DNA of 64,000 nt from contig NZ_JACHIV010000001.1 in NCBI RefSeq assembly GCF_014203325.1, positions 3,845,501 to 3,909,500 on the forward strand, given 5' to 3'. The notes beneath the pieces are model-generated. The model saw only the letters and a program-made list of their open reading frames with translations, was not told the origin of the DNA and made no database searches. The position numbers and the translations under genes are program-made. Of this stretch, positions 29,474 to 43,255 are shown in pieces. The stretch's first letter is position 1; each line of letters begins with the position of its first letter. The stretch comes from Saccharopolyspora gloriosae (lineage in GTDB: Bacteria > Actinomycetota > Actinomycetes > Mycobacteriales > Pseudonocardiaceae).

Positions 29474-29527
29474 GCGACCGGCGGGCGGCATGCGCGATCT
29501 CACAGGTCATTGCGACTTGCCGGAAAG

Positions 29528-29546
29528 AATGGTTAGGCTAACCTAA
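29528..29546 (+). promoter_or_regulatory. DtxR/IdeR-type iron box
   Basis: AATGGTTAGGCTAACCTAA matches the 19-bp consensus TTAGGTTAGGCTAACCTAA at 16 positions, including the whole palindromic core and right arm. TTGCCG (29517-29522) with TAACCT (29539-29544) at 16 bp is a plausible overlapping promoter. It lies 150 bp before the giant secreted-type protein, which is therefore expected to be induced under iron limitation. Confidence 0.8.
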
Positions 29547-29696
29547 CCAAGATCTCCGGCCGATGCGATGCACCATCGGCGGCCCTCGATCCCCACCCCG
29601 CCACCAGGCGACCAGCGCGCAGCTGCTCGTCGCGATGCCGCCTGCCTCGCTCCGGTTCGCCCGGCGCGGCCCAGGTTCGATGGAGAGAACCAGCGC

Positions 29697-32600
29697 ATGC
29701 CCACCGAACTACCCGCCGGGCTCCAGAAGGCCCTGGAGATCGTCGGCGGCCAGCCGTGGCCCGAGGGCGACGAAGCAGGACTGGAACGCATCGCCGGCGC
29801 TTGGGAGTCGCTGATCGGCGCGATCGACGAGACCGCCGCCGCGCTGCGGAAATCGGTGCACGGGCTGCAGGAGCACATGCGCGGCGAATTCGCCGAGTCC
29901 TACGGGGACCACGTCCGCGGCACGCTGCTGCCGACGCTCGACGGCCTGCGGGAGACCGCGCGCGGACTCGCCGACCAGGCGCAGAACACCGCCGCGGACA
30001 TCCAGTACGCCCGGATCATGATCGTGGTGCAGCTGGTGATGCTGGCGGCGACGATCGCGCTGGCCTGGATCCCGGGGATCGGGCAGGCGCTGGTGGCCGC
30101 GGCGGCATCGGTGGCGCGCGTGGTCATCGGCCGGGTGCTCTCGCAGGTGCTGGCGAACATCATCGCGCGGGCGGGCACCACCGTGGCCGGGCGCGTCGCG
30201 TTGAACGCCGCTTCCGGCGCGGTCGTCAACGAAGTCGTCGAGCTGTCGCTGGACGCCACCGTCCAGGGATTGCAGCTGGCCACCGGCAAGCGCACCGACT
30301 GGAACGAGCAGTTCACCAAGGGAGCGGCCATCAGCGGCGCGGTCGGCGGAGCCGCGGCCGGGGCGGCCGGTTCGCTCGTGCACGAGCTGACCCGGATCGG
30401 CGGTGCCGCGCTGAAGAAGTCCGCGAGCGCACCCGGTGCGGGTGGCGGCCTCGGCCGCGACGCGGTGCGCGGGATGGACCGGTTCGCGGACAGCCGGGCC
30501 GGGAAGGAGGCGAACCGGGCCCTCGGCGCCGGAGCTCAGGGCGCCGCGGCGCTGGCCGGGGACGCGGCGGCGAACGCGGCCGGCGGGATGCAGGGCGTGG
30601 GCGCGTACACGTTCACCTCGGCCGCGTTGGAGAGCCTTGCGGGCGGACGCGGTCGAGGACGCGGCGGTGCCGGGGCCTACGGCCCGGTGCAGGCGGCGCC
30701 CGACGTGGGCGACGCGATCGGCGGGCTGGATTCGGTGACCACCGAGTCGACCGGGCCGGACCTGCCCAGCGCGGAATCCGCCGCGCGCGGCGACACGACG
30801 GCGTCCGATGCCGCCGCGGGCGGTGACCCGGTCAGGACGGTCTCGCGGGACGCCGTGCCGGAATCAGGTCCGGAGCGCGCGGACGGCGTTGCCGAAACAC
30901 GTCCCCGCGCCGCACCGGATCCGCGCTTGTCCACAGTGGAGTCGAATTCATCGAGCGCGGCTCGATCGACCTCGGGAGCCGAAGCGATCGCGGACGCGGT
31001 TCCCGCCACGCGACGGTCCGACGACGACTCCGGCACGGCTCCGGCACCGGCTTCGACCACGGGTTCGGACGCGCCGCGGGGCCGATCCGAGGCGGAGGGC
31101 ATCTCCAGCAGTGGTGCGAGAAGTGCCGAGCCGAGCCAGGAGCGTCGCGAGGAGTCCACCCCGGCGACGCCCCGGGAACGAGCCGCCGCACTGCACCGGG
31201 AGTCGCCCGCTCAGGATTCCGCGATCGAAGACCACCGGAATACCGGTTTCCCTGAGAACACCGCGCAGAATTTCACCGCAGGGCAACGGGAAACGCCGGT
31301 CGAACATCGCGCGTCGGAGTCGGCACGGCAGTTCGCCGCGGCCGAGCGGGCGGAGACCGCGACCGAGCAGACGCCCCGCGATCCGCGATCGGAATCCGCC
31401 GAACCGGCGCGCGGAACCGGACACCCGCACCCGGCGGAATCCGGCGCGGCACAGGGGCGGAACGCCACCGCCGGGGACGACACGGCTTCCCCCTCCCGCA
31501 CCTCGACGTCGGCGGAGTCGGCGCCGGACGCATCCGCCCGGCAGGACTCGCCGACCGCCGACACGACGACGGAGCCCGCGCCCCGTGTCGCACCGCAGGA
31601 ACCCGCTGGCATCGCGCCGCACGACCCGGCCACCGCGGACGGCGCGCGGCACGACGACACCGCATCGCCGCAGCGCGCCGTCGGCGAATCCGCGCGGAGC
31701 GAAACGGCTTTCGCGCGACCCGCGAGTGATTCAGTGTCGTCCGACTCCACCGATGTGCTCGCCGGGGAGCACTCGCGCACAGCTCCCGTGCCGCACTCCC
31801 CAGTCGACCGCGCAGCTCCGTCCGAACTGAGCTCCGCTCAGGACGGCGACGCGCCCAGCGCCGCCGCGCGTGCGCGGGGCGACTCGGCATCGCCCCCGGT
31901 CGCGCCGCGCGAAGCGGCACCTGAGGCCGAAATCGCCGCGACCACCGCCACCGAGCGCGCACCGCACGAGCAGGACGACACGGCCCCGGCCGAGCCTCGC
32001 CAGCGCGACGTGGAACGCGCCGAGCCGCACGACCGGGAGACTCCGCAGGAGCAGCACCGCGACCACCGCATTGCACCGGCCCAGCCGGACGGAACCGACC
32101 GGTCGGTGATCCAGCACGCCACCGACCACTCGGATCCGGGCTCCCGGAGCGAAACCGGCCAGCGGGAGCCGACGATCCAGAACGAGACCCGCCCGCCGGA
32201 GTCGACGATCCACAGCATCACCGCCCGACCGGAGCCAGGAGCCCGGAGCGAGACGGATCAGCCCGGCTTCCGGCAGCGGGGTGACACCGCCCAGGTGGCG
32301 CGAGACAGCGCCGAACGGGTCGCGCCGCCGGAGCAGCGCGTCGGCCAGGAGGGGACCCGATCCGCTGAGCCCTCAGCGGTTCCGGCCACGACTCCGCTGC
32401 CGAACCACTCGGTCGCGACGCACTCCGCACCGTCCTCCGCACCTACGACGGCGAGCCCTTCCGGCACCGCGAGCACCCCCGGCATCACGAGCGCTCCCGG
32501 CACCCCTCGCGATGCGCACACGCGACCGGCTACCAGCAGCGACCCGAGCGGACCGGCGGGGAACGCGACGCGCCGCCCGGTCACGACCTCGGCGACGGCC

Positions 32601-35600
32601 GAGACCGGCGCCGCCCCTCCAGACCGGCGACCGGACGCGCCCGCCCCGCCGCCGCGCGCGCACCTGCGTCAGGAACGCGCAGCGGAGCCCGCCCCGCGCG
32701 CGCACGAGGATTCGGCGCCGCCCGCCCGCGAGCACGCGCCCCGCTCGGGACTCCCGACCGTTCCCGAGCGGGCGCACCTGTCCGACGCGGACGGCATCCC
32801 GCTGCGCGAGCTCCCCACCCGATCCAGGGGCGCGGAGCTCGACCCGGCGTCCGAACCCGACCGGGCACCGCTCGCGGCGACACGGCTCCAGGAGGGTTCC
32901 GGCGACGTCGTCCTGGACATCGACGGCACCGCTCCGCGCGAAGGCCCGGTCACCGAGCGGACCCAGCGCGTCCACGACCTGGTGCGGCACAACGCGGTCA
33001 TCGCCGACGCCATCGACGGCACCGCGCTGCGAGCGGACGCGCGGGCCGCGCTGCACCGAGCGGAGGTCCCGGCGGCGCGCGTCGACCGGTTGCTCGACGG
33101 CCTGTCCGACATCGCGCTGAAGGACGACTTCAAGGTGCTCACCCAGGAAGGACTTCGGTTGCGCACCGGGCAGGGCGCGGACGCGGTGGAGGTCCACGTC
33201 CGGCTGCGGCCCGGTGACGACACCTCGGACGGCGCCTCGCCGGAACCGACCTCGGGCAAGCAGGACTTCGCGCACGGCACGGATTCGGTGGCGGGCGGCG
33301 CCTACGGCAAGGCCGCCGGGGACAAGCAGTCCGGTCCGCGCCGCGACGGCGGATTCAACCACTTCCTGTCGCTGCCGCCCCCGACGGGCACCTCGAACCC
33401 GCACCGCACGATCGACCCGTCGTTCGGGTTCCGCGGCGCCACCCCGCAACCGTCCTGGGCGCACGGCGACACCACCGAGCTGGAGCACAGCGCGAGCTAC
33501 ACCCCGCCGAACACGTGGTCCGGCAGCACCCACGACCTCGTGCACGACCTGGTCGTGCGGCGCCCCGACCGGACCACGGCGAGTTCGGGGACGCAGCCGG
33601 GCGGCGCGAAGCTGACCATGCCGGAGGTGCTGGTGCAGGTCGACGCGGCCGAGGCGAAGTCAGCGGGCGGCCCGCGCGCGACCTTCGTGCGGGGTGATCA
33701 GGGACTGTTCGACGTGCTGAGCGATCTGGTGGGCGGTCATCCGCGGTGGACGGCCGCGACCGGCGCCGTGAACTCGCCGGTGCGCAACGACCTGCTGGAG
33801 CTCACGGGGAGCAAGAGCCTGTCGCACCTGGGCAACGACGTGCTCGACGGCTCGACGCTGACGAAGGCGCTGGAGATGCACGACGACGCGGGCCGCAGGC
33901 GCACCGCGCAGGTGGAGATCCGGTTCCGGCAAGGCGGCGCGCGGGGGTTCACCACTCCGCCGCGCCCTGAACCGGCGACCTCGGAGGCCGGATCGCAGCG
34001 GCCCGGCACGTCCGCGGGCACGAGCCCGGCGGAGCGCAGCGATCCCGGCTCATCCGAGCTCCGTCCCCCGCCGGACTCGGAAGAAGCGGCACGCAGCGTC
34101 CCGGCCACGGCGGAGACCAGCGCATCCGACGAGACGTCCGGATCGGCGGAAACCGCGCGGAAATCCGGGAAGGACGCCGAACCGGACGACGAGCCGAAAC
34201 CGACGATGCTCACCGAGCAGGGCCGCGGCTACAAGAACGAGGCCTCGCACACGGCGGGGTCCGCGCAGCCGTTCAACGTCAACGCCGGGCTCGGGCTCGG
34301 CTTCACCTGGAGCCTGTTCGACAAGCCGGGCACCGCGCAGCCGAGCTACACCCACGGCGACCGGCTGGACCTGCGGCTGGACGGTCGGGCGTTCCGGTCC
34401 AGCGGCACCGACCGCTCCACCGTGCGCACGGTGGAGAACACCGCCGCGACCACGTGGTTCGGCAGCGGACGGCTGCACGGCGTGGTCGGCGACCTCACCT
34501 ACGACGTCACGGTCCGCTTCGACGACGGCCAGGTCCGCCACGCGGGCCACCACGTTCCGGAAGGCGCCACGACCTGGTCGCTGGCCGAGCCCGACGCCCC
34601 GGACAAGCCGGCGGACGACCCGGGCCACCTCGCCGAGGACAACACGGCCCCGTTCGCTCCGCACCGGGTGATCGGGGCCGCGGAGACCCACTTCCCCAAC
34701 GCCGACGGCCTGCGCACGGCGCTGCGGGACCGGTTGCCCGCCGCCGTGCTGCGCGATGACGCGGGGACCGCCGGGAACGTGCGCGCCTCGGACAACGAGG
34801 TGGCGTTGCGCTACTTCACCTCGCCGCGCGGGTTGCTGTCGCACTCCCCCGAGCTCAACGGCGACGGCATGTCGTTCCTGCTGAACCGGGGGACGCACGC
34901 CGGCACCGGCACCCCGGACGACTTCGTGCGCGTCGTGATCCGGGCGGTGCCGCGCGAAGGCTCCGCCGTCGAAGCCGGCACCGCGAGGGCATCCGCGGCG
35001 GGGAGCTCACCCGACGCGCGGGACACCGCCGACGCGAGCACCACCGACTCTGACGACTCCGGGAGCACGCGACCCGTCGGCCTCGCCGGCTCAGCGGACG
35101 GCGTGGTTCCTCCCAGCAGCGCGCAACGCCGCTACACGCCCGAAACCGACCGCTCCCGCGAGGGATCCGGTTGGGAGGACACGACGTTGCGCGGCGAACT
35201 GCAGGAGAAGGGCCGCATCGACCACTCCGAAACGGTCCGCGGCGCGACCACCGCCGGCGGCGGTTCCGGGGTTCGCGCGGGCATCGGCTCCGAGCGCATC
35301 AACCGCACCCTGGAGTTCACCGCCGGGTACAACCGGTCGTTCGGCGGCGAGCAGCGCACCGTGGACTCCTCCAGCGGGCAGGGACGCGGGTTCGGCTGGT
35401 CCGGGAAGAAGTTCACCGCGCACCAGCGCCCGATCGACTACGAGATCTCGTTGCGCGACAACGGGATCGTGGAGCGCTTCACCGTCGACGGCGGCGCGGC
35501 CACCACCTACCGCAGCGGGCGCACCGCGCTCACCGAGCCCGCCACCGACGGCAACTCCGAGTACCGCGCGGTCGACCACGACGCCCCGGCGCGCCCGGAC

Positions 35601-38219
35601 GGCTGGGCGCCCGGCTCGTTGCCGGACCACTTCGCCGTGCACGGGCTCGACCTGCCCGCGGGCCGCGCCGATCGGCTCAGCGGCGAGCTGCTGGGCGAAC
35701 ACCCGGACGGCGCGCAGGTTGCGGAGCAGCAGGTGCACGTCTTCGCGGGCGAGGACAAGGTCGCGGTGAACCTGGACCGCGCCACGACCGGCACGTACAC
35801 CACCCCGGTGCACCGGTACGCCGAAGGCGAATGGCTCGGTTTCCGCAACCGGCTCGGCGACGCCGCGATGCACGTGGCGCTGAGCAATCCGCGCGTCTCC
35901 GGCCCGCCGACGAAGATGACGTTGACGTTCATCGGCAAGTCGACCGGCTCCACCGGGCACGGTTCGGAACGCGGCAGGACCGACTACACCTTCGGCAACG
36001 GCCGGATGAGTGTGGCGCCGATCAAGCAGTTCTACCTGCTGCCGCAGCCCGGTTACGGGTACGCGCGCAACGACTCCGAAGGCGGTTCGGTCAAGCAGGA
36101 GCACGAGCACACCACGACGACCACCTACGACGGTCCGGCGTACCTGGTCACCTACGACACGACGACGCTGCTGTCCGGGCGCGACGTCGTCCACACCGGG
36201 GTCGGCCCGTACGACGGGCGCGGTGTCGGCGAGTGGCGGCACGCGCAGGCGGACCGGCGGGACTCGGTGCAGGTGTGGGTGCCCGCGCGGGAGATCGACC
36301 AGGTCGGGTTGCCGCCCGGCTGGGACGACGGTCACGACCGCGCGGACGCCGAGCCGCGCACGTCCGGCGAACGCGCGCCCGCCTCCGACCGCGCGGGCGA
36401 GGGCGACGACGCGTCCCGCGGCACCGCCGAGGAGCGGCCGGTGCCGAGGCTGGTCCTCGACGGGCACGCCTCGCCGAGCGTGCGTCCCGAGGTGACCGAA
36501 CGACTCGTCTCGCAGATCAAGGACTCGCTGCTGCGGGTGCCTCCCGCCGAGGTCCCGCAGGCCGCGCTGGCCCGGTTCACCCGCTTCCTCACCTCCGGCA
36601 TCGCCGACGCCGCGGGACGCGTCGTCCACGGTTCCGGGCAGCGGGTCGCGGCCGAGGACCTGGCTCGGCAGGTCCTCGGTGACGTCTCGCCGCGCGGCCT
36701 CGCGACGTTGCTGCCCGACCTGGTGGGGCTCGGCAAGGAGTGGTCGACGTCGGTGGACGGCCCGCTCGGCTCGACCCGGCTGAGCCTGCTGCTGCGGGCT
36801 CGGCTCGGCGAAGGCCGTTTCACCGGGACCGACGAGGGCTGGTCGGACAACCACCAGTCGAAGGCCACGACGACCACGAGCGCGGTCGTGTCGTCGAGCC
36901 GTTCGCACAACGGCAACTTCTCGCTGCGCACCCCGATCTACACGGACGCGCAGATCGCTCGCTCGGTCGGGGCGGGCGCGATGACGACGGGTTCGCTCGC
37001 GGACACGCGCAAGCGCACCGAGGAGTCGGTCACCGAACGCACCACGTCCCAGTTCACCTCCGGCGACATCGCCTGGTTCAGCCACCCGATCGAACTGGAG
37101 CTGGAGGTCCGCCGGACCGCGCACGCCAACCACGCGGCGCGCGCGCTCACGGGCGGCCTCGTCGACAACATCATGCCCGGGGCGGACGTGCGGCATCCGC
37201 GCGTCGACGCCATCCCGGACGCGGTGCACAGCTACCACCCCGCCGGAGAGAGCGCCCCCGGTGACCGCGAGGCGCAGCCGGTCACCGGATTCCCCGACGC
37301 GCACTACTCCCGCGCCGGCGGCGGCTCGATCGCCGGGGTGGTGCGGGACGTCCTCGACGGTGTCCCGGCGGGCGAGCACACCGGGCAGGCTCCCCCGGCG
37401 GTCCCGCCGGAGGCGACCTCGGCCCGCCAGGCCATCAACACCGGGGCGAGCCCGTCGGCGCTGTCGGCGCACCTGCCGGACGCGCTCGGCGACACCGGCT
37501 ACCGCTTGGACGGGCTCGACCACGACGCCCGTTACCGGACCGCGTTCGGGCAGCGGCACCCGTTGCGGTCGCTGACCTTCCACGTCCGGCTGGAGCAGGC
37601 GCGGGTGACGCCCGCCGGGTACACGCCGCTGGAAGGCTTGGAGATCAACAAGACGGAGGTCTCGAAGAGCTCGGTGAACGACGAACGCACTTCCGGTCCG
37701 ATGTGGAACACGCTGATGGCTTCGGCTCCGCTGACCCTGTTCCCGCGGCCGACGGCGGGCAGCAGCTTCGAACCGGGCACCGCGCTGACCGAGATGGGCG
37801 AGGTGCGCGGCAGCGGCCCGGCGCTGAGCTGGCAGCGCACCGACACCGCCGCCCTCAACGGCAAGAAGACCGAGGACATCGAGCTCTCCGACGGGGAGAT
37901 CTACCTGGTCGAGGCCCGCGCGCGGTGGACCATCACCCCCGGATACCGGGGCGAGGTCCCCTCGGAGTGGACTGCGCCCCGGACCGCGCGGGACGCGGTG
38001 CACGTGCGCACCGACGAGAACGGCTTGCGCGCGATGGGCCTGGAACCACCGCCGAAGACCGAGGACGACTCCGACGCGGAGTCCGACGTGTTCTTCGACG
38101 CGGTGTCGGACTTCGGCGAGGACGTCTTCCACGACGCCCCCACAGACCCGGCCCCACCAGGAGACGAACCCACCTCGGAGCTGGCGCACTTCCTCACCCC
38201 GAGCAGAGAGAACCGTTGA
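29697..38219 (+). CDS. Giant WXG100/CpnT-like N-terminal, multi-module surface or secreted protein (2,840 aa)
   Basis: ATG 29697 has GGAGAG upstream; the extension from 29568 is not protein-like. Residues 1-100 are a helical WXG100/CpnT-N-like domain (IAGAWESLIGAIDETAAAL, FAESYGDHV). Residues about 106-165 are strongly hydrophobic, then Ala/Gly-rich to about 330. Residues about 340-1085 are low-complexity Ser/Ala/Pro/Glu/Arg. From about 1086 there are four to five beta-rich modules separated by acidic linkers (near 1180-1430, 1500-1770, 1820-2215, 2245-2500 and 2580-2775). They share turns such as NTWSGS, TTWFGS and FGWSGKK. The tail is acidic (DDSDAESDVFFDAVSDFGEDVF). No known toxin domain is visible. 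An ESX-type secretion route is inferred from the N-terminus; no ESX genes are in the window. The iron box at 29528 suggests iron-starvation expression. Confidence 0.8.
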   Translation: MPTELPAGLQKALEIVGGQPWPEGDEAGLERIAGAWESLIGAIDETAAALRKSVHGLQEHMRGEFAESYGDHVRGTLLPTLDGLRETARGLADQAQNTAADIQYARIMIVVQLVMLAATIALAWIPGIGQALVAAAASVARVVIGRVLSQVLANIIARAGTTVAGRVALNAASGAVVNEVVELSLDATVQGLQLATGKRTDWNEQFTKGAAISGAVGGAAAGAAGSLVHELTRIGGAALKKSASAPGAGGGLGRDAVRGMDRFADSRAGKEANRALGAGAQGAAALAGDAAANAAGGMQGVGAYTFTSAALESLAGGRGRGRGGAGAYGPVQAAPDVGDAIGGLDSVTTESTGPDLPSAESAARGDTTASDAAAGGDPVRTVSRDAVPESGPERADGVAETRPRAAPDPRLSTVESNSSSAARSTSGAEAIADAVPATRRSDDDSGTAPAPASTTGSDAPRGRSEAEGISSSGARSAEPSQERREESTPATPRERAAALHRESPAQDSAIEDHRNTGFPENTAQNFTAGQRETPVEHRASESARQFAAAERAETATEQTPRDPRSESAEPARGTGHPHPAESGAAQGRNATAGDDTASPSRTSTSAESAPDASARQDSPTADTTTEPAPRVAPQEPAGIAPHDPATADGARHDDTASPQRAVGESARSETAFARPASDSVSSDSTDVLAGEHSRTAPVPHSPVDRAAPSELSSAQDGDAPSAAARARGDSASPPVAPREAAPEAEIAATTATERAPHEQDDTAPAEPRQRDVERAEPHDRETPQEQHRDHRIAPAQPDGTDRSVIQHATDHSDPGSRSETGQREPTIQNETRPPESTIHSITARPEPGARSETDQPGFRQRGDTAQVARDSAERVAPPEQRVGQEGTRSAEPSAVPATTPLPNHSVATHSAPSSAPTTASPSGTASTPGITSAPGTPRDAHTRPATSSDPSGPAGNATRRPVTTSATAETGAAPPDRRPDAPAPPPRAHLRQERAAEPAPRAHEDSAPPAREHAPRSGLPTVPERAHLSDADGIPLRELPTRSRGAELDPASEPDRAPLAATRLQEGSGDVVLDIDGTAPREGPVTERTQRVHDLVRHNAVIADAIDGTALRADARAALHRAEVPAARVDRLLDGLSDIALKDDFKVLTQEGLRLRTGQGADAVEVHVRLRPGDDTSDGASPEPTSGKQDFAHGTDSVAGGAYGKAAGDKQSGPRRDGGFNHFLSLPPPTGTSNPHRTIDPSFGFRGATPQPSWAHGDTTELEHSASYTPPNTWSGSTHDLVHDLVVRRPDRTTASSGTQPGGAKLTMPEVLVQVDAAEAKSAGGPRATFVRGDQGLFDVLSDLVGGHPRWTAATGAVNSPVRNDLLELTGSKSLSHLGNDVLDGSTLTKALEMHDDAGRRRTAQVEIRFRQGGARGFTTPPRPEPATSEAGSQRPGTSAGTSPAERSDPGSSELRPPPDSEEAARSVPATAETSASDETSGSAETARKSGKDAEPDDEPKPTMLTEQGRGYKNEASHTAGSAQPFNVNAGLGLGFTWSLFDKPGTAQPSYTHGDRLDLRLDGRAFRSSGTDRSTVRTVENTAATTWFGSGRLHGVVGDLTYDVTVRFDDGQVRHAGHHVPEGATTWSLAEPDAPDKPADDPGHLAEDNTAPFAPHRVIGAAETHFPNADGLRTALRDRLPAAVLRDDAGTAGNVRASDNEVALRYFTSPRGLLSHSPELNGDGMSFLLNRGTHAGTGTPDDFVRVVIRAVPREGSAVEAGTARASAAGSSPDARDTADASTTDSDDSGSTRPVGLAGSADGVVPPSSAQRRYTPETDRSREGSGWEDTTLRGELQEKGRIDHSETVRGATTAGGGSGVRAGIGSERINRTLEFTAGYNRSFGGEQRTVDSSSGQGRGFGWSGKKFTAHQRPIDYEISLRDNGIVERFTVDGGAATTYRSGRTALTEPATDGNSEYRAVDHDAPARPDGWAPGSLPDHFAVHGLDLPAGRADRLSGELLGEHPDGAQVAEQQVHVFAGEDKVAVNLDRATTGTYTTPVHRYAEGEWLGFRNRLGDAAMHVALSNPRVSGPPTKMTLTFIGKSTGSTGHGSERGRTDYTFGNGRMSVAPIKQFYLLPQPGYGYARNDSEGGSVKQEHEHTTTTTYDGPAYLVTYDTTTLLSGRDVVHTGVGPYDGRGVGEWRHAQADRRDSVQVWVPAREIDQVGLPPGWDDGHDRADAEPRTSGERAPASDRAGEGDDASRGTAEERPVPRLVLDGHASPSVRPEVTERLVSQIKDSLLRVPPAEVPQAALARFTRFLTSGIADAAGRVVHGSGQRVAAEDLARQVLGDVSPRGLATLLPDLVGLGKEWSTSVDGPLGSTRLSLLLRARLGEGRFTGTDEGWSDNHQSKATTTTSAVVSSSRSHNGNFSLRTPIYTDAQIARSVGAGAMTTGSLADTRKRTEESVTERTTSQFTSGDIAWFSHPIELELEVRRTAHANHAARALTGGLVDNIMPGADVRHPRVDAIPDAVHSYHPAGESAPGDREAQPVTGFPDAHYSRAGGGSIAGVVRDVLDGVPAGEHTGQAPPAVPPEATSARQAINTGASPSALSAHLPDALGDTGYRLDGLDHDARYRTAFGQRHPLRSLTFHVRLEQARVTPAGYTPLEGLEINKTEVSKSSVNDERTSGPMWNTLMASAPLTLFPRPTAGSSFEPGTALTEMGEVRGSGPALSWQRTDTAALNGKKTEDIELSDGEIYLVEARARWTITPGYRGEVPSEWTAPRTARDAVHVRTDENGLRAMGLEPPPKTEDDSDAESDVFFDAVSDFGEDVFHDAPTDPAPPGDEPTSELAHFLTPSRENR

Positions 38220-38229
38220 GAATTTCTAG

Positions 38230-38248
38230 TCACCGGCGAAGCCGGTGA
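38230..38248 (+). terminator. Hairpin after the giant gene
   Basis: TCACCGGC-GAA-GCCGGTGA, perfect 8-bp stem starting 11 bp after the stop codon. Confidence 0.55.
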
Positions 38249-38278
38249 GCAGCGACCACCAAAGCAACTGGAACACCC

Positions 38279-38380
38279 GCGGGTTCTCAGCTGTCTTCTC
38301 GCGAGGACAGCTTTTTCCCTCGTGGCGGAGCCACTCGGGAAAAAGATCCCGCAGCGAGAAGACAGCTGAGGTTCCGCCAA
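38279..38380. repeat. Dispersed palindromic repeat, copy 2: two nested hairpins
   Basis: The outer stem CTCAGCTGTCTTCTCGC (38286-38302) pairs perfectly with 38354-38370. Inside it, CTTTTTCCC-tc-GTGGC-gga-GCCAC-tc-GGGAAAAAG (38311-38345) forms a second stem. The outer ends read GGGTTCTCAGC and GCTGAGGTTCC, the family signature. The flank GCAGCGACCA (38249-38258) recurs before the copy at 63.7 kb. Confidence 0.85.
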
Positions 38381-38414
38381 GCGACCCACCAAGCAAAAAG
38401 ACCCCGACCCCCCA

Positions 38415-38849
38415 TCACAAGTCGGATTCGCCGAGGCGGTGCAGGAGGCGGGTGAGCTCGGCGACGTCGTCGGGGTTCCAGCCGCCCAGCGCTTCCCGCC
38501 ACCGCCGCGCCTGGTCGGCGAGCTGCTCGGCGACCTTCGCGCGGCCGTCCTCGGTGAGCACGACGAGGCGGGCGCGGGCGTCGCTGGGGTCGGGCACCCG
38601 TTCGGCGAGGCCGATCCGCACGACGGCGTCGACCTGCCTGCTCACGGTGGACTTGTCCAGCGACAGCGCCCCGGCGATGGCCGACATGCGCATCGCCCCC
38701 TCCTTCGACAGGAGGACGACCAGCGGATAGGCGGTCGGGTCGAGCCGGGGGTGCACGGCGCGGGCGAGCTCGCGGGTGCGCAACCGCGTGCGGCGCCCCA
38801 GTTCGCGCATCTCCTCTTCCAGGGCTGGCAGGTACTCCTCCGCGGACAC
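38415..38849 (-). CDS. MarR-family transcriptional regulator
   Basis: 144 residues. The winged helix is typical: MSAIAGALSLDKSTVSRQVDAVVRIGLAERVPDPSDARARLVVLTEDG at about residues 54-102, with the conserved DxRxxxVxLT wing. The GTG start at 38849 has GGAG 7-8 bp upstream. It stands alone between palindromic repeats; its targets and ligand are unknown. Confidence 0.9.
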   Translation of the reverse strand: MSAEEYLPALEEEMRELGRRTRLRTRELARAVHPRLDPTAYPLVVLLSKEGAMRMSAIAGALSLDKSTVSRQVDAVVRIGLAERVPDPSDARARLVVLTEDGRAKVAEQLADQARRWREALGGWNPDDVAELTRLLHRLGESDL

Positions 38850-39183: not shown

Positions 39184-39342
39184 ATGAGCGAGCCCGACCC
39201 GTTGATCGACCCGACCCGCGACCCGAACCCCGGCGTCGCCGACCACGCCGCCCCCGAGGGCGCCGACATCGATCCCCTGATCGACCTGTCCCGCGACCCG
39301 AACCCCGGCGTCCCCAACCACGCCAAGCCGGACGAGGACTGA
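39184..39342 (+). CDS. 52-residue protein with an internal tandem duplication
   Basis: ATG 39184 follows a good GGAGG site. The protein consists of two copies of an acidic 18-residue unit, DPLIDPTRDPNPGVADHA and DPLIDLSRDPNPGVPNHA, each followed by a short Pro/Asp tail. No signal peptide or membrane segment. I do not recognise it. It could be a disordered acidic protein or a repeat-type peptide precursor; no maturation enzyme is adjacent. Convergent with smpB. Confidence 0.65.
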   Translation: MSEPDPLIDPTRDPNPGVADHAAPEGADIDPLIDLSRDPNPGVPNHAKPDED

Positions 39343-42220: not shown

Positions 42221-43255
42221 TCACGGCTCCACGATGATCTTGCAGTGTTCTTCGGGATCGCCGAGGGCGTCGAACGCCCACGGCACGTCGTCCAGCCCGA
42301 CCCGCGCGGTCACCAGCGGGGCGACGTCGACGTCCCCGTCGGCGATCGCCCGCAACGACTCCGCGAACTCCGCGGGTTCGTAGCCGAAGGCGAACCGGAC
42401 GGCGAGCTGCTTGGTGACGGCGAAGTAGGGGTTGATCACGTCGTCGCCCATGCACACGCCCACCACGACGACCTGGGACCCGGCCGGCGCGTGGCGCAGC
42501 ACGTCGTTGAGCACGCCGGGCACGCCGACCGCCTCGAACACGACGAGCCGCCGATCACCGCCGACCCGGCGCCACGCGGCCCACCCGGTCTCGGCGGCGG
42601 GATCGACGACGTGGTGGGCGCCGAGACGTCCGGCGAGCCGGCGTCGCGCCGGGGAGAAGTCCGCGGCCACGATCGGCGCGACGCCTCGGGTTCGCAGCGC
42701 GGCGATCACGGCGAGACCGACCGGCCCGCAGCCGAGCACGACGGCGCCTTCGCCGGTGGGTGCGGCGAGGTTCACCGCGTGCAGCCCGACGGCCATCGGC
42801 TCGGTGAGCGCGGCGTGGTGCGCGGGCAGCCCGTTGGGCACCGGGAGCACCAGTGGCGCCGACAGCAGCATCCGCTCGCCGTAGCCGCCGTGCACCGTGT
42901 TCGAGTACACGATCGGCGCCGGCCCGTTCTCGGCCAGCAGCAGGGGGAAGGACGTCACGAGCTCGCCCGGGCTCAGGTCGGTCTCGGTGTCCGGCCCCAC
43001 TTCGAGCACCTCGGCCGCGAACTCGTGTCCCATGTGGACATCGCGGGCCAGGTCCACCTCGTCGGCTTGGAACGGGAGTCCGCTCATCTGGCGGCCCAGC
43101 GCCAGCATTTCCGCGCCGTGCCGGGCGAAGTGCAGGTCCGATCCGCAGATCCCGCAGGCCTTCACCCGCACCAACACCTGGCCCGCGCCCGGTCGGGGTT
43201 CGGCGATGTCGTCGCGGACGAACACGCGGCCCGAGTTGAGCACCGCCGCGCGCAT
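42221..43255 (-). CDS. Zinc-dependent medium-chain alcohol dehydrogenase
   Basis: 344 residues. Catalytic zinc motif ACGICGSDLHF near residues 34-44, then MGHEFAAEVLEVG, and the NAD-binding loop VVLGCGPVGLAVIAAL. The usual four-Cys structural-zinc loop is shortened, as in several secondary-alcohol dehydrogenases. The start overlaps the stop of the LLM gene (ATGA), indicating coupling. In this operon it could oxidise the diol formed by epoxide hydrolysis; that is inference from gene order. Confidence 0.9.
   Translation of the reverse strand: MRAAVLNSGRVFVRDDIAEPRPGAGQVLVRVKACGICGSDLHFARHGAEMLALGRQMSGLPFQADEVDLARDVHMGHEFAAEVLEVGPDTETDLSPGELVTSFPLLLAENGPAPIVYSNTVHGGYGERMLLSAPLVLPVPNGLPAHHAALTEPMAVGLHAVNLAAPTGEGAVVLGCGPVGLAVIAALRTRGVAPIVAADFSPARRRLAGRLGAHHVVDPAAETGWAAWRRVGGDRRLVVFEAVGVPGVLNDVLRHAPAGSQVVVVGVCMGDDVINPYFAVTKQLAVRFAFGYEPAEFAESLRAIADGDVDVAPLVTARVGLDDVPWAFDALGDPEEHCKIIVEP

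What the first reader, a model, noticed from the sequence alone, without database searches (positions are those of the whole stretch)
29528..38219. Giant CpnT-like protein under a near-perfect iron box
A 19-bp sequence matching the DtxR/IdeR consensus at 16 positions lies 150 bp before a 2,840-codon gene with a WXG100/CpnT-like N-terminus. I know of no established iron-regulated protein of this architecture. It could act in iron or haem capture, or be deployed in competition when iron is short. The link between iron box and architecture is the most system-like signal in the window.
Basis: partly seen in the sequence, partly recalled or inferred. Interest (0 to 1): 0.78.

Follow-up and report, generated by a model that had tools for sequence, protein, structure and literature searches.

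The report
Giant secreted protein under iron switch
A very large protein, probably exported by a type VII secretion system in a soil actinomycete, sits in a strain-specific DNA insert behind a switch that normally turns on iron-scavenging genes, which suggests it is made when iron runs short, although its job is still unknown.

Summary
The site at 29528-29546 matches the DtxR/IdeR consensus at 16 of 19 positions, 150 bp before a 2,840-aa gene (29697-38219) whose only recognised domain is WXG100_2. By sequence the box belongs to this genome's IdeR regulon: 7 of the 8 other such places lie within 53 bp of a called gene start, mostly of iron-uptake, siderophore or haem genes; a congener has the identical 19-mer before an acetyltransferase gene, and the window promoter resembles that gene's promoter in three genomes. 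A close IdeR homologue is encoded.
The protein is a compact relative of far larger proteins (frames of 8,000-17,000 codons) of the same genus. It shares their N-terminal region and a ~1,700-aa internally repetitive module; no toxin or iron-binding domain was recognised and no other gene was called in the unit. Box and gene lie in one ~8.95-kb unit missing from a clean site in congener G005 (inferred Saccharopolyspora sp. NFXS83). No relative examined has the box, so conservation gives no support. Best reading: a type VII effector-like paralogue recruited to the low-iron response; a role in competition is favoured over iron capture, but function is open.

The parts
29510..29515 (+). -35-like hexamer TTGCGA, 18 bp before a TAGGCT (29534-29539) that lies inside the box
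   Evidence: ATTGC at the same distance before the box in the window and in 3 of 3 acetyltransferase promoters (G004, G003, own genome), but in 0 of the 8 other oriented box promoters of the own genome. A sigma-70 consensus scan called no promoter.
29528..29546 (+). IdeR/DtxR-type operator, 16/19 to consensus
   Evidence: identical 19-mer in G004 before an Acetyltransf_8 gene
29697..38219 (+). 2,840-aa WXG100_2 protein (P0001)
29748..30137 (+). WXG100_2 domain (PF25547), aa 18-147
   Evidence: E 7.9e-17
30000..30143 (+). only segment over the hydrophobicity threshold used, aa 102-149
   Evidence: Kyte-Doolittle scan
30630..32876 (+). low-complexity hydrophilic linker, about aa 312-1060
   Evidence: composition table
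32931..38066 (+). core module, aa 1079-2790, shared with the giant proteins and internally repetitive (unit about 320 aa)
29478..38427 (.). unit absent from the same site in congener G005 (box plus gene)
   Evidence: window 29477 meets L107:5172 and window 38428 meets L107:5193
38234..38380 (.). dispersed palindromic repeat at the right end of the unit; contains a terminator-like stem

Best explanation
The gene encodes a compact, orphan member of the giant WXG100_2 proteins that this genus carries in type VII-like gene neighbourhoods. It most likely arrived in this strain as one ~8.95-kb unit together with a promoter of the IdeR type. With iron plentiful, Fe-IdeR sits on the box over the promoter and blocks transcription; when iron falls the gene is expressed along with siderophore and haem-oxygenase genes. 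The WXG100_2/hydrophobic N-terminus takes the protein through one of the genome's type VII systems. The repetitive ~1,700-aa C-terminal module then acts at or beyond the cell surface, most likely in contact with neighbouring cells. Shown: box, its regulon by sequence, a clean empty site, module homology. Inferred: that the unit was gained rather than lost elsewhere, IdeR binding, export, and action on other cells.
For: Box and regulon. Promoter resemblance to the acetyltransferase promoters of three genomes. IdeR present, closest in the PDB to S. erythraea IdeR 7B1V (E 1.2e-121; first 60 residues identical as printed). IdeR of S. erythraea was shown to bind sites of this kind (PMC8464063, passages). 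EccB (type VII) at three places. Homology of N-terminal region and core to giants; small WXG100 gene (over Pfam cut-off) just before the giants of G004 and G005, and WXG100 and EccB genes near that of the own genome. The own-genome giant carries two Gln_deamidase_2 domains. Tree groups the core with own-genome copy 1 and the G003 giant (100/100). Empty site.
Against: No recognised catalytic domain in P0001 and no other gene called in the unit, so no candidate immunity gene (a simple composition-based caller). The gene is not beside an EccB locus, and no box at 16 of 19 or better lies near the three EccB places, so the machinery itself shows no such control. No relative examined has the box. 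The -35-like match is absent from the other own-genome box promoters and a consensus scan calls no promoter. The box lies 150 bp from the start, against at most 53 bp for the other promoter-placed boxes. AlphaFold models of the core are poor (mean pLDDT 30.8 and 34.4).
Confidence: 0.53

Rival explanations
1. The protein captures iron, haem or siderophores at the surface, as the T7SS-secreted iron-binding effector ExsI does in Corynebacterium glutamicum.
For: Most genes with a recognised family at the other promoter-placed boxes of this genome are siderophore, iron-uptake or haem genes. A T7SS-secreted iron-binding effector is published (PMC12607788, abstract and passages).
Against: No iron, haem or siderophore family matched in P0001; no cysteines. 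Relatives with the same module, where examined, lack the box, and the own-genome giant carries effector-type domains.
Confidence: 0.2
2. It is a toxin: the core module itself, which is at or near the C-terminus in P0001 and in three relatives (G133, G017, G074), is an unrecognised toxic or pore-forming end.
For: The core ends the protein in G133, ends 7 residues before the stop in G017, and about 80 and 50 residues before it in G074 and P0001. Giant WXG proteins of actinobacteria are described as polymorphic toxins; the longest toxin listed has 13,652 aa (PMC3482391, passages).
Against: The module is internally repetitive and lies in the interior of the genus giants, which suits a stalk or translocator better. 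No immunity gene candidate.
Confidence: 0.2
3. The box is a chance palindrome or a transcription terminator; the insert is a silent relic.
For: The palindrome can be read as a terminator-like stem on the minus strand. One of nine box places in the genome lies between convergent genes, not at a promoter. The consensus scan calls no promoter.
Against: Pattern control 0 in six genomes; resemblance to the acetyltransferase promoters; no minus-strand gene was called that would need a terminator here; the frame is open over 2,840 codons with conserved module sequence.
Confidence: 0.07

Closest known systems
Giant WXG-type polymorphic toxins of actinobacteria (PMC3482391, passages)
   Same: WXG-type N-terminus, low-complexity linker, very large size; the own-genome giant carries Gln_deamidase_2 domains and stands near WXG100 and EccB genes
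   Different: P0001 has no recognised toxin domain, no candidate immunity gene, no ESX neighbourhood, and an IdeR-type box
CpnT (Mycobacterium), N-terminal channel domain plus C-terminal toxin (recalled)
   Same: WXG100_2-type N-terminus with a hydrophobic segment
   Different: Far longer, repetitive C-terminal module, no toxin domain found; CpnT itself was not fetched or compared
ExsI of Corynebacterium glutamicum, a Fur-regulated T7SS with an iron-binding effector (PMC12607788, abstract and passages)
   Same: Couples type VII export to iron limitation
   Different: There the T7SS is under Fur; here one orphan gene has an IdeR-type box; no known iron-binding family; no sequence comparison with ExsI was run
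IdeR regulon of Saccharopolyspora erythraea (PMC8464063, 12 of 43 passages)
   Same: Same operator consensus and a very close IdeR
   Different: The passages read name iron uptake and storage, a siderophore cluster and Nuo; 'secretion' does not occur in the main text; the supplementary target table was not read
IdeR-controlled ESX-3 of mycobacteria (recalled; PMC3796483 and PMC9505556 seen as search listings)
   Same: Iron control of type VII secretion
   Different: There the secretion machine is controlled, here an orphan putative substrate

Membership tests
IdeR/DtxR regulon | 19-bp palindromic box close to consensus | tested here: met
   16/19
IdeR/DtxR regulon | Box upstream of the gene | tested here: met
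   150 bp before the start; the other 7 promoter-placed boxes of the genome lie within 53 bp of a called start
IdeR/DtxR regulon | Box over the promoter | tested here: inconclusive
   ATTGC offset shared with 3 acetyltransferase promoters only; consensus scan calls no promoter
IdeR/DtxR regulon | IdeR encoded in the genome | tested here: met
IdeR/DtxR regulon | Box conserved before orthologues | tested here: inconclusive
   No box in the relatives examined, but the four congeners inspected have no orthologue at this locus
IdeR/DtxR regulon | IdeR binding and iron response | not testable with these tools
   needs gel shift and transcript measurement
WXG-type polymorphic toxins / CpnT-like proteins | WXG100_2 N-terminus | tested here: met
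WXG-type polymorphic toxins / CpnT-like proteins | C-terminal toxin domain | tested here: not met
   none in Pfam or NCBIfam; unrecognised domains are not excluded
WXG-type polymorphic toxins / CpnT-like proteins | Immunity gene next to the toxin gene | tested here: not met
   No other gene called inside the unit; the two flanking genes are present in G005 without it
WXG-type polymorphic toxins / CpnT-like proteins | Type VII secretion system in the genome | tested here: met
   EccB at three places, (other components were not searched)
WXG-type polymorphic toxins / CpnT-like proteins | Export by that system | not testable with these tools
   needs a secretion assay
Siderophore, haem or iron uptake proteins | A recognised iron, haem or siderophore family | tested here: not met
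   no cysteines

The most novel reading that the evidence does not exclude
A horizontally inserted unit has wired a giant type VII effector paralogue into the strain's IdeR siderophore regulon, so that iron starvation itself triggers a contact-dependent attack on, or feeding from, neighbouring cells. It would be a 'take iron from your neighbour' device built from a polymorphic-toxin scaffold with a new repetitive C-terminal module.
Probability: 0.22. Interest if true: 0.72.

Novelty: new variant of a known kind. Interest (0 to 1): 0.5.

Why it matters
If the gene answers to IdeR, it would be an orphan type VII effector-like protein, away from any secretion locus, placed by insertion under the general iron-starvation switch. 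That would show how a giant WXG100_2 protein can be rewired to a nutrient signal, and it gives a simple inducer (an iron chelator) with which to express and study a protein family that is otherwise hard to approach. Seven literature searches that joined iron or iron-regulator terms with type VII, CpnT or polymorphic-toxin terms showed no such case among the 10 to 20 papers listed by each; the searches hit 19 to 708 papers each, and only the open-licence part of PubMed Central was searched.

Tried and rejected
Whole P0001 as a degenerate-pattern query in genome contigs found 47 pattern matches and no relative; with alignment A1 it found 2 loci. No match among plasmids, none in solved structures with the core profile, none in PADLOC. 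AlphaFold of the core with 3-row alignments gave mean pLDDT 30.8 and 34.4, too poor for a fold search, so none was run. A tRNA-Thr call at 42254-42347 lies inside an open reading frame and was set aside. Rejected: the box belongs to the neighbouring genes (they stand in G005 without it); the box is only a terminator. Corrected on checking: a -35-like ATTGC first seen in four of four compared promoters is shared only with the three acetyltransferase promoters, not with the 8 other oriented box promoters of the genome, and the confidence was lowered slightly for it; the small gene just before the giants of G003 and the own genome matches no WXG100 model. Dropped before a count: G145, whose core match is weak (25% over aa 1964-2790), was left out of the tree (10 rows) and of the repeat profile (10 rows).
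Full report
WHAT IS THERE. The 19-mer at 29528-29546 matches TTAGGTTAGGCTAACCTAA at 16 of 19 positions and is the only such site in the window (0 in 100 shuffles). The gene behind it runs 29697-38219 and encodes 2,840 aa. Its first 24 residues equal those of an 8,333-aa reading in congener G003, which supports the start. Pfam finds one domain, WXG100_2 (aa 18-147, E 7.9e-17); NCBIfam and PADLOC find none. There follow a single hydrophobic stretch (aa 102-149), a low-complexity linker, and a core module, aa 1079-2790, 34-42% identical to internal parts of giant frames of the same genus. There are no cysteines.

THE ORGANISM. One contig of congener G005 has the length (203,412 bases) of a Saccharopolyspora sp. 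NFXS83 contig found with the same module. I infer that G005 is NFXS83 and that the window comes from Saccharopolyspora or a genus split from it.

THE BOX IS A REGULON MEMBER BY SEQUENCE. The own genome holds 11 strand-matches at up to 3 mismatches, which are 9 separate places, and none with the reversed pattern. The six genomes of the genus hold 8-13 strand-matches each and none reversed. Of the 8 other places in the own genome, 7 lie within 53 bp of a called gene start and 1 lies between convergent genes. Pfam/NCBIfam names at the 7: Acetyltransf_8; 2,3-dihydro-2,3-dihydroxybenzoate dehydrogenase with isochorismate synthase behind it; PNPOx_N; Peripla_BP_2 and siderophore-interacting protein on either side of one box; haem oxygenase; FecCD permease; DUF2470. 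That the acetyltransferase is a siderophore enzyme is recalled, not tested. The very 19-mer of the window occurs in G004 before an Acetyltransf_8 gene. ATTGC stands 19 to 15 bp before the box, 18 bp before a TAGGCT inside the box, in the window and in the acetyltransferase promoters of G004, G003 and the own genome (4 of 4), but in none of the 8 other oriented box promoters of the own genome. ATTGC occurs at about 1.5 per 10,000 positions per strand in the window. So the window promoter looks like the acetyltransferase promoter in particular; it is not a general -35 of the regulon, and a sigma-70 consensus scan calls nothing here. The genome encodes an IdeR whose best PDB match is S. erythraea IdeR 7B1V (E 1.2e-121, the first 60 residues identical as printed). 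That protein was shown to bind such sites, with 37 sites at 23 gene clusters predicted in S. erythraea (PMC8464063, passages). IdeR binding here is inferred.

ONE UNIT, ONE STRAIN. In G005 the upstream gene and the downstream MarR gene meet: window 29477 aligns up to L107:5172 and window 38428 from L107:5193. Box and gene therefore lie together in a unit of about 8.95 kb that is absent there. G003, G004 and G001 also lack it between conserved flanks, but there the upstream gene is missing from that place as well, so only 1 of the 4 inspected sites is a clean empty site. G002 was not inspected. The unit holds no other called gene. Its right end is a dispersed palindromic repeat found at many other places. 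Gain in this lineage is the simpler reading; loss in the others is not excluded.

THE FAMILY. In this genus the same module sits inside very long frames: 8,338, 17,426 and at least 6,029 codons in G003, G004 and G005, and twice in a second giant of the own genome (10,782-codon frame, part of which reads N in the held copy). G001 and G002 have frames of about 16,000 codons with a related N-terminus but no match to the C-terminal query. The own-genome giant stands near EccB and small genes of which one passes the WXG100 cut-offs; the gene directly before it matches no WXG100 model. Downstream are three similar genes, one of which was tested and matches NF033532, type VII secretion system-associated protein. 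The small gene directly before the giant passes the Pfam WXG100 cut-off in G004 and G005 but matches nothing in G003. Pfam finds two Gln_deamidase_2 domains in the readable part of the own-genome giant and a sub-threshold Fic match in G003. Outside the genus the module is rare: of 150 genomes drawn from the family 8 matched, 4 of them from this genus (own genome included) and 4 from other genera; an earlier draw of 60 with a longer query and a stricter limit gave 2. Compact proteins like P0001 occur in G133 (2,285 aa, ending with the core) and G017 (3,352 aa as read, ending 7 residues after it). The tree groups P0001's module with own-genome copy 1 and the G003 giant (support 100/100; the G003 branch is long). 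With 34-42% identity, P0001 is an old paralogue of the giants, not a fresh copy.

WHAT THE CORE LOOKS LIKE. A profile of 10 relatives aligned to itself gives off-diagonal matches (columns 415-748 against 173-489, score 59.5, probability 73%, E 3.1e-5; 523-1018 against 1059-1563, score 46.1, probability 21%). The controls reached 25.8 (reversed) and 45.0 (best of 8 local shuffles). The first repeat is thus above the controls, the second barely. A ~320-aa unit repeated with strong divergence suits a stalk, scaffold or translocator. AlphaFold models are too poor to use.

CONSERVATION OF THE BOX. No site better than 13 of 19 was found near any relative examined; 13 upstream stretches of 12 WXG100_2-type genes in the genus, best 12 of 19. 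G017, S. elongata and further congener loci, best 12. G133, G074, G145, G005 and G004, best 12. At the syntenic places in four congeners the best is 13. For G074 the start of the gene was not reached; for the own genome's second giant the start lies in a part that reads N, so its promoter was not seen. The association of box and gene is therefore known from one genome.

MECHANISM. Iron replete: Fe-IdeR on the box covers the promoter and blocks transcription. Iron poor: the gene is transcribed with the siderophore genes. The protein is exported by a type VII system (EccB at three places, none with a box at up to 3 mismatches nearby) and displays or delivers its repetitive module outside. Links between type VII export and iron are in print: an iron-binding effector of a Fur-controlled system in C. 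glutamicum (PMC12607788, abstract and passages), ESX-4 in haem use (PMC10117145, passages), and haem control of the S. aureus system (PMC5845736, abstract). I favour a role in cell contact or competition because the own-genome giant carries effector-type domains and no iron-binding family was found, but this step is inference. The absence of a recognised toxin domain and of an immunity gene counts against a plain toxin.

VERDICT. Observation confirmed; interpretation partly supported; new variant of a known kind. The finding deserves a bench test of iron control, which is simple; the function of the core module is the open question.

Noticed in passing
window 38234-38380; copies in L113, L020, L022, L001, L102, L107, L118, L005: A ~147-bp palindromic repeat dispersed in several genomes of the genus, one copy forming the right end of the insert; it may be a small mobile or terminator element.
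   Followed up: partly
window 39184-39339 (+): Small frame MSEPDPLIDPTRDPNPGVADHAAPEGADIDPLIDLSRDPNPGVPNHAKPDED with two similar repeats of about 25 aa; similar frames in G005, G003 and G001 beside the same MarR gene.
   Followed up: no
L001 2150-2168 and counterparts in the other five genomes: A 17/19 IdeR-like box that in the own genome lies between convergent superoxide-dismutase-like (by eye) and MFS-like genes. 17/19 boxes of nearly the same letters occur in 6 of 6 genomes, in each within 2 kb of a MarR-like match. Not at an obvious promoter.
   Followed up: partly
G004 contig 1, 807284-859513: A 17,409-aa open frame with a WXG100_2-like N-terminus, longer than the longest toxin (13,652 aa) listed in PMC3482391.
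   Followed up: partly
window 42254-42347 (-): ARAGORN calls a 94-nt tRNA-Thr inside an open reading frame (42221-43255 -); probably false.
   Followed up: no
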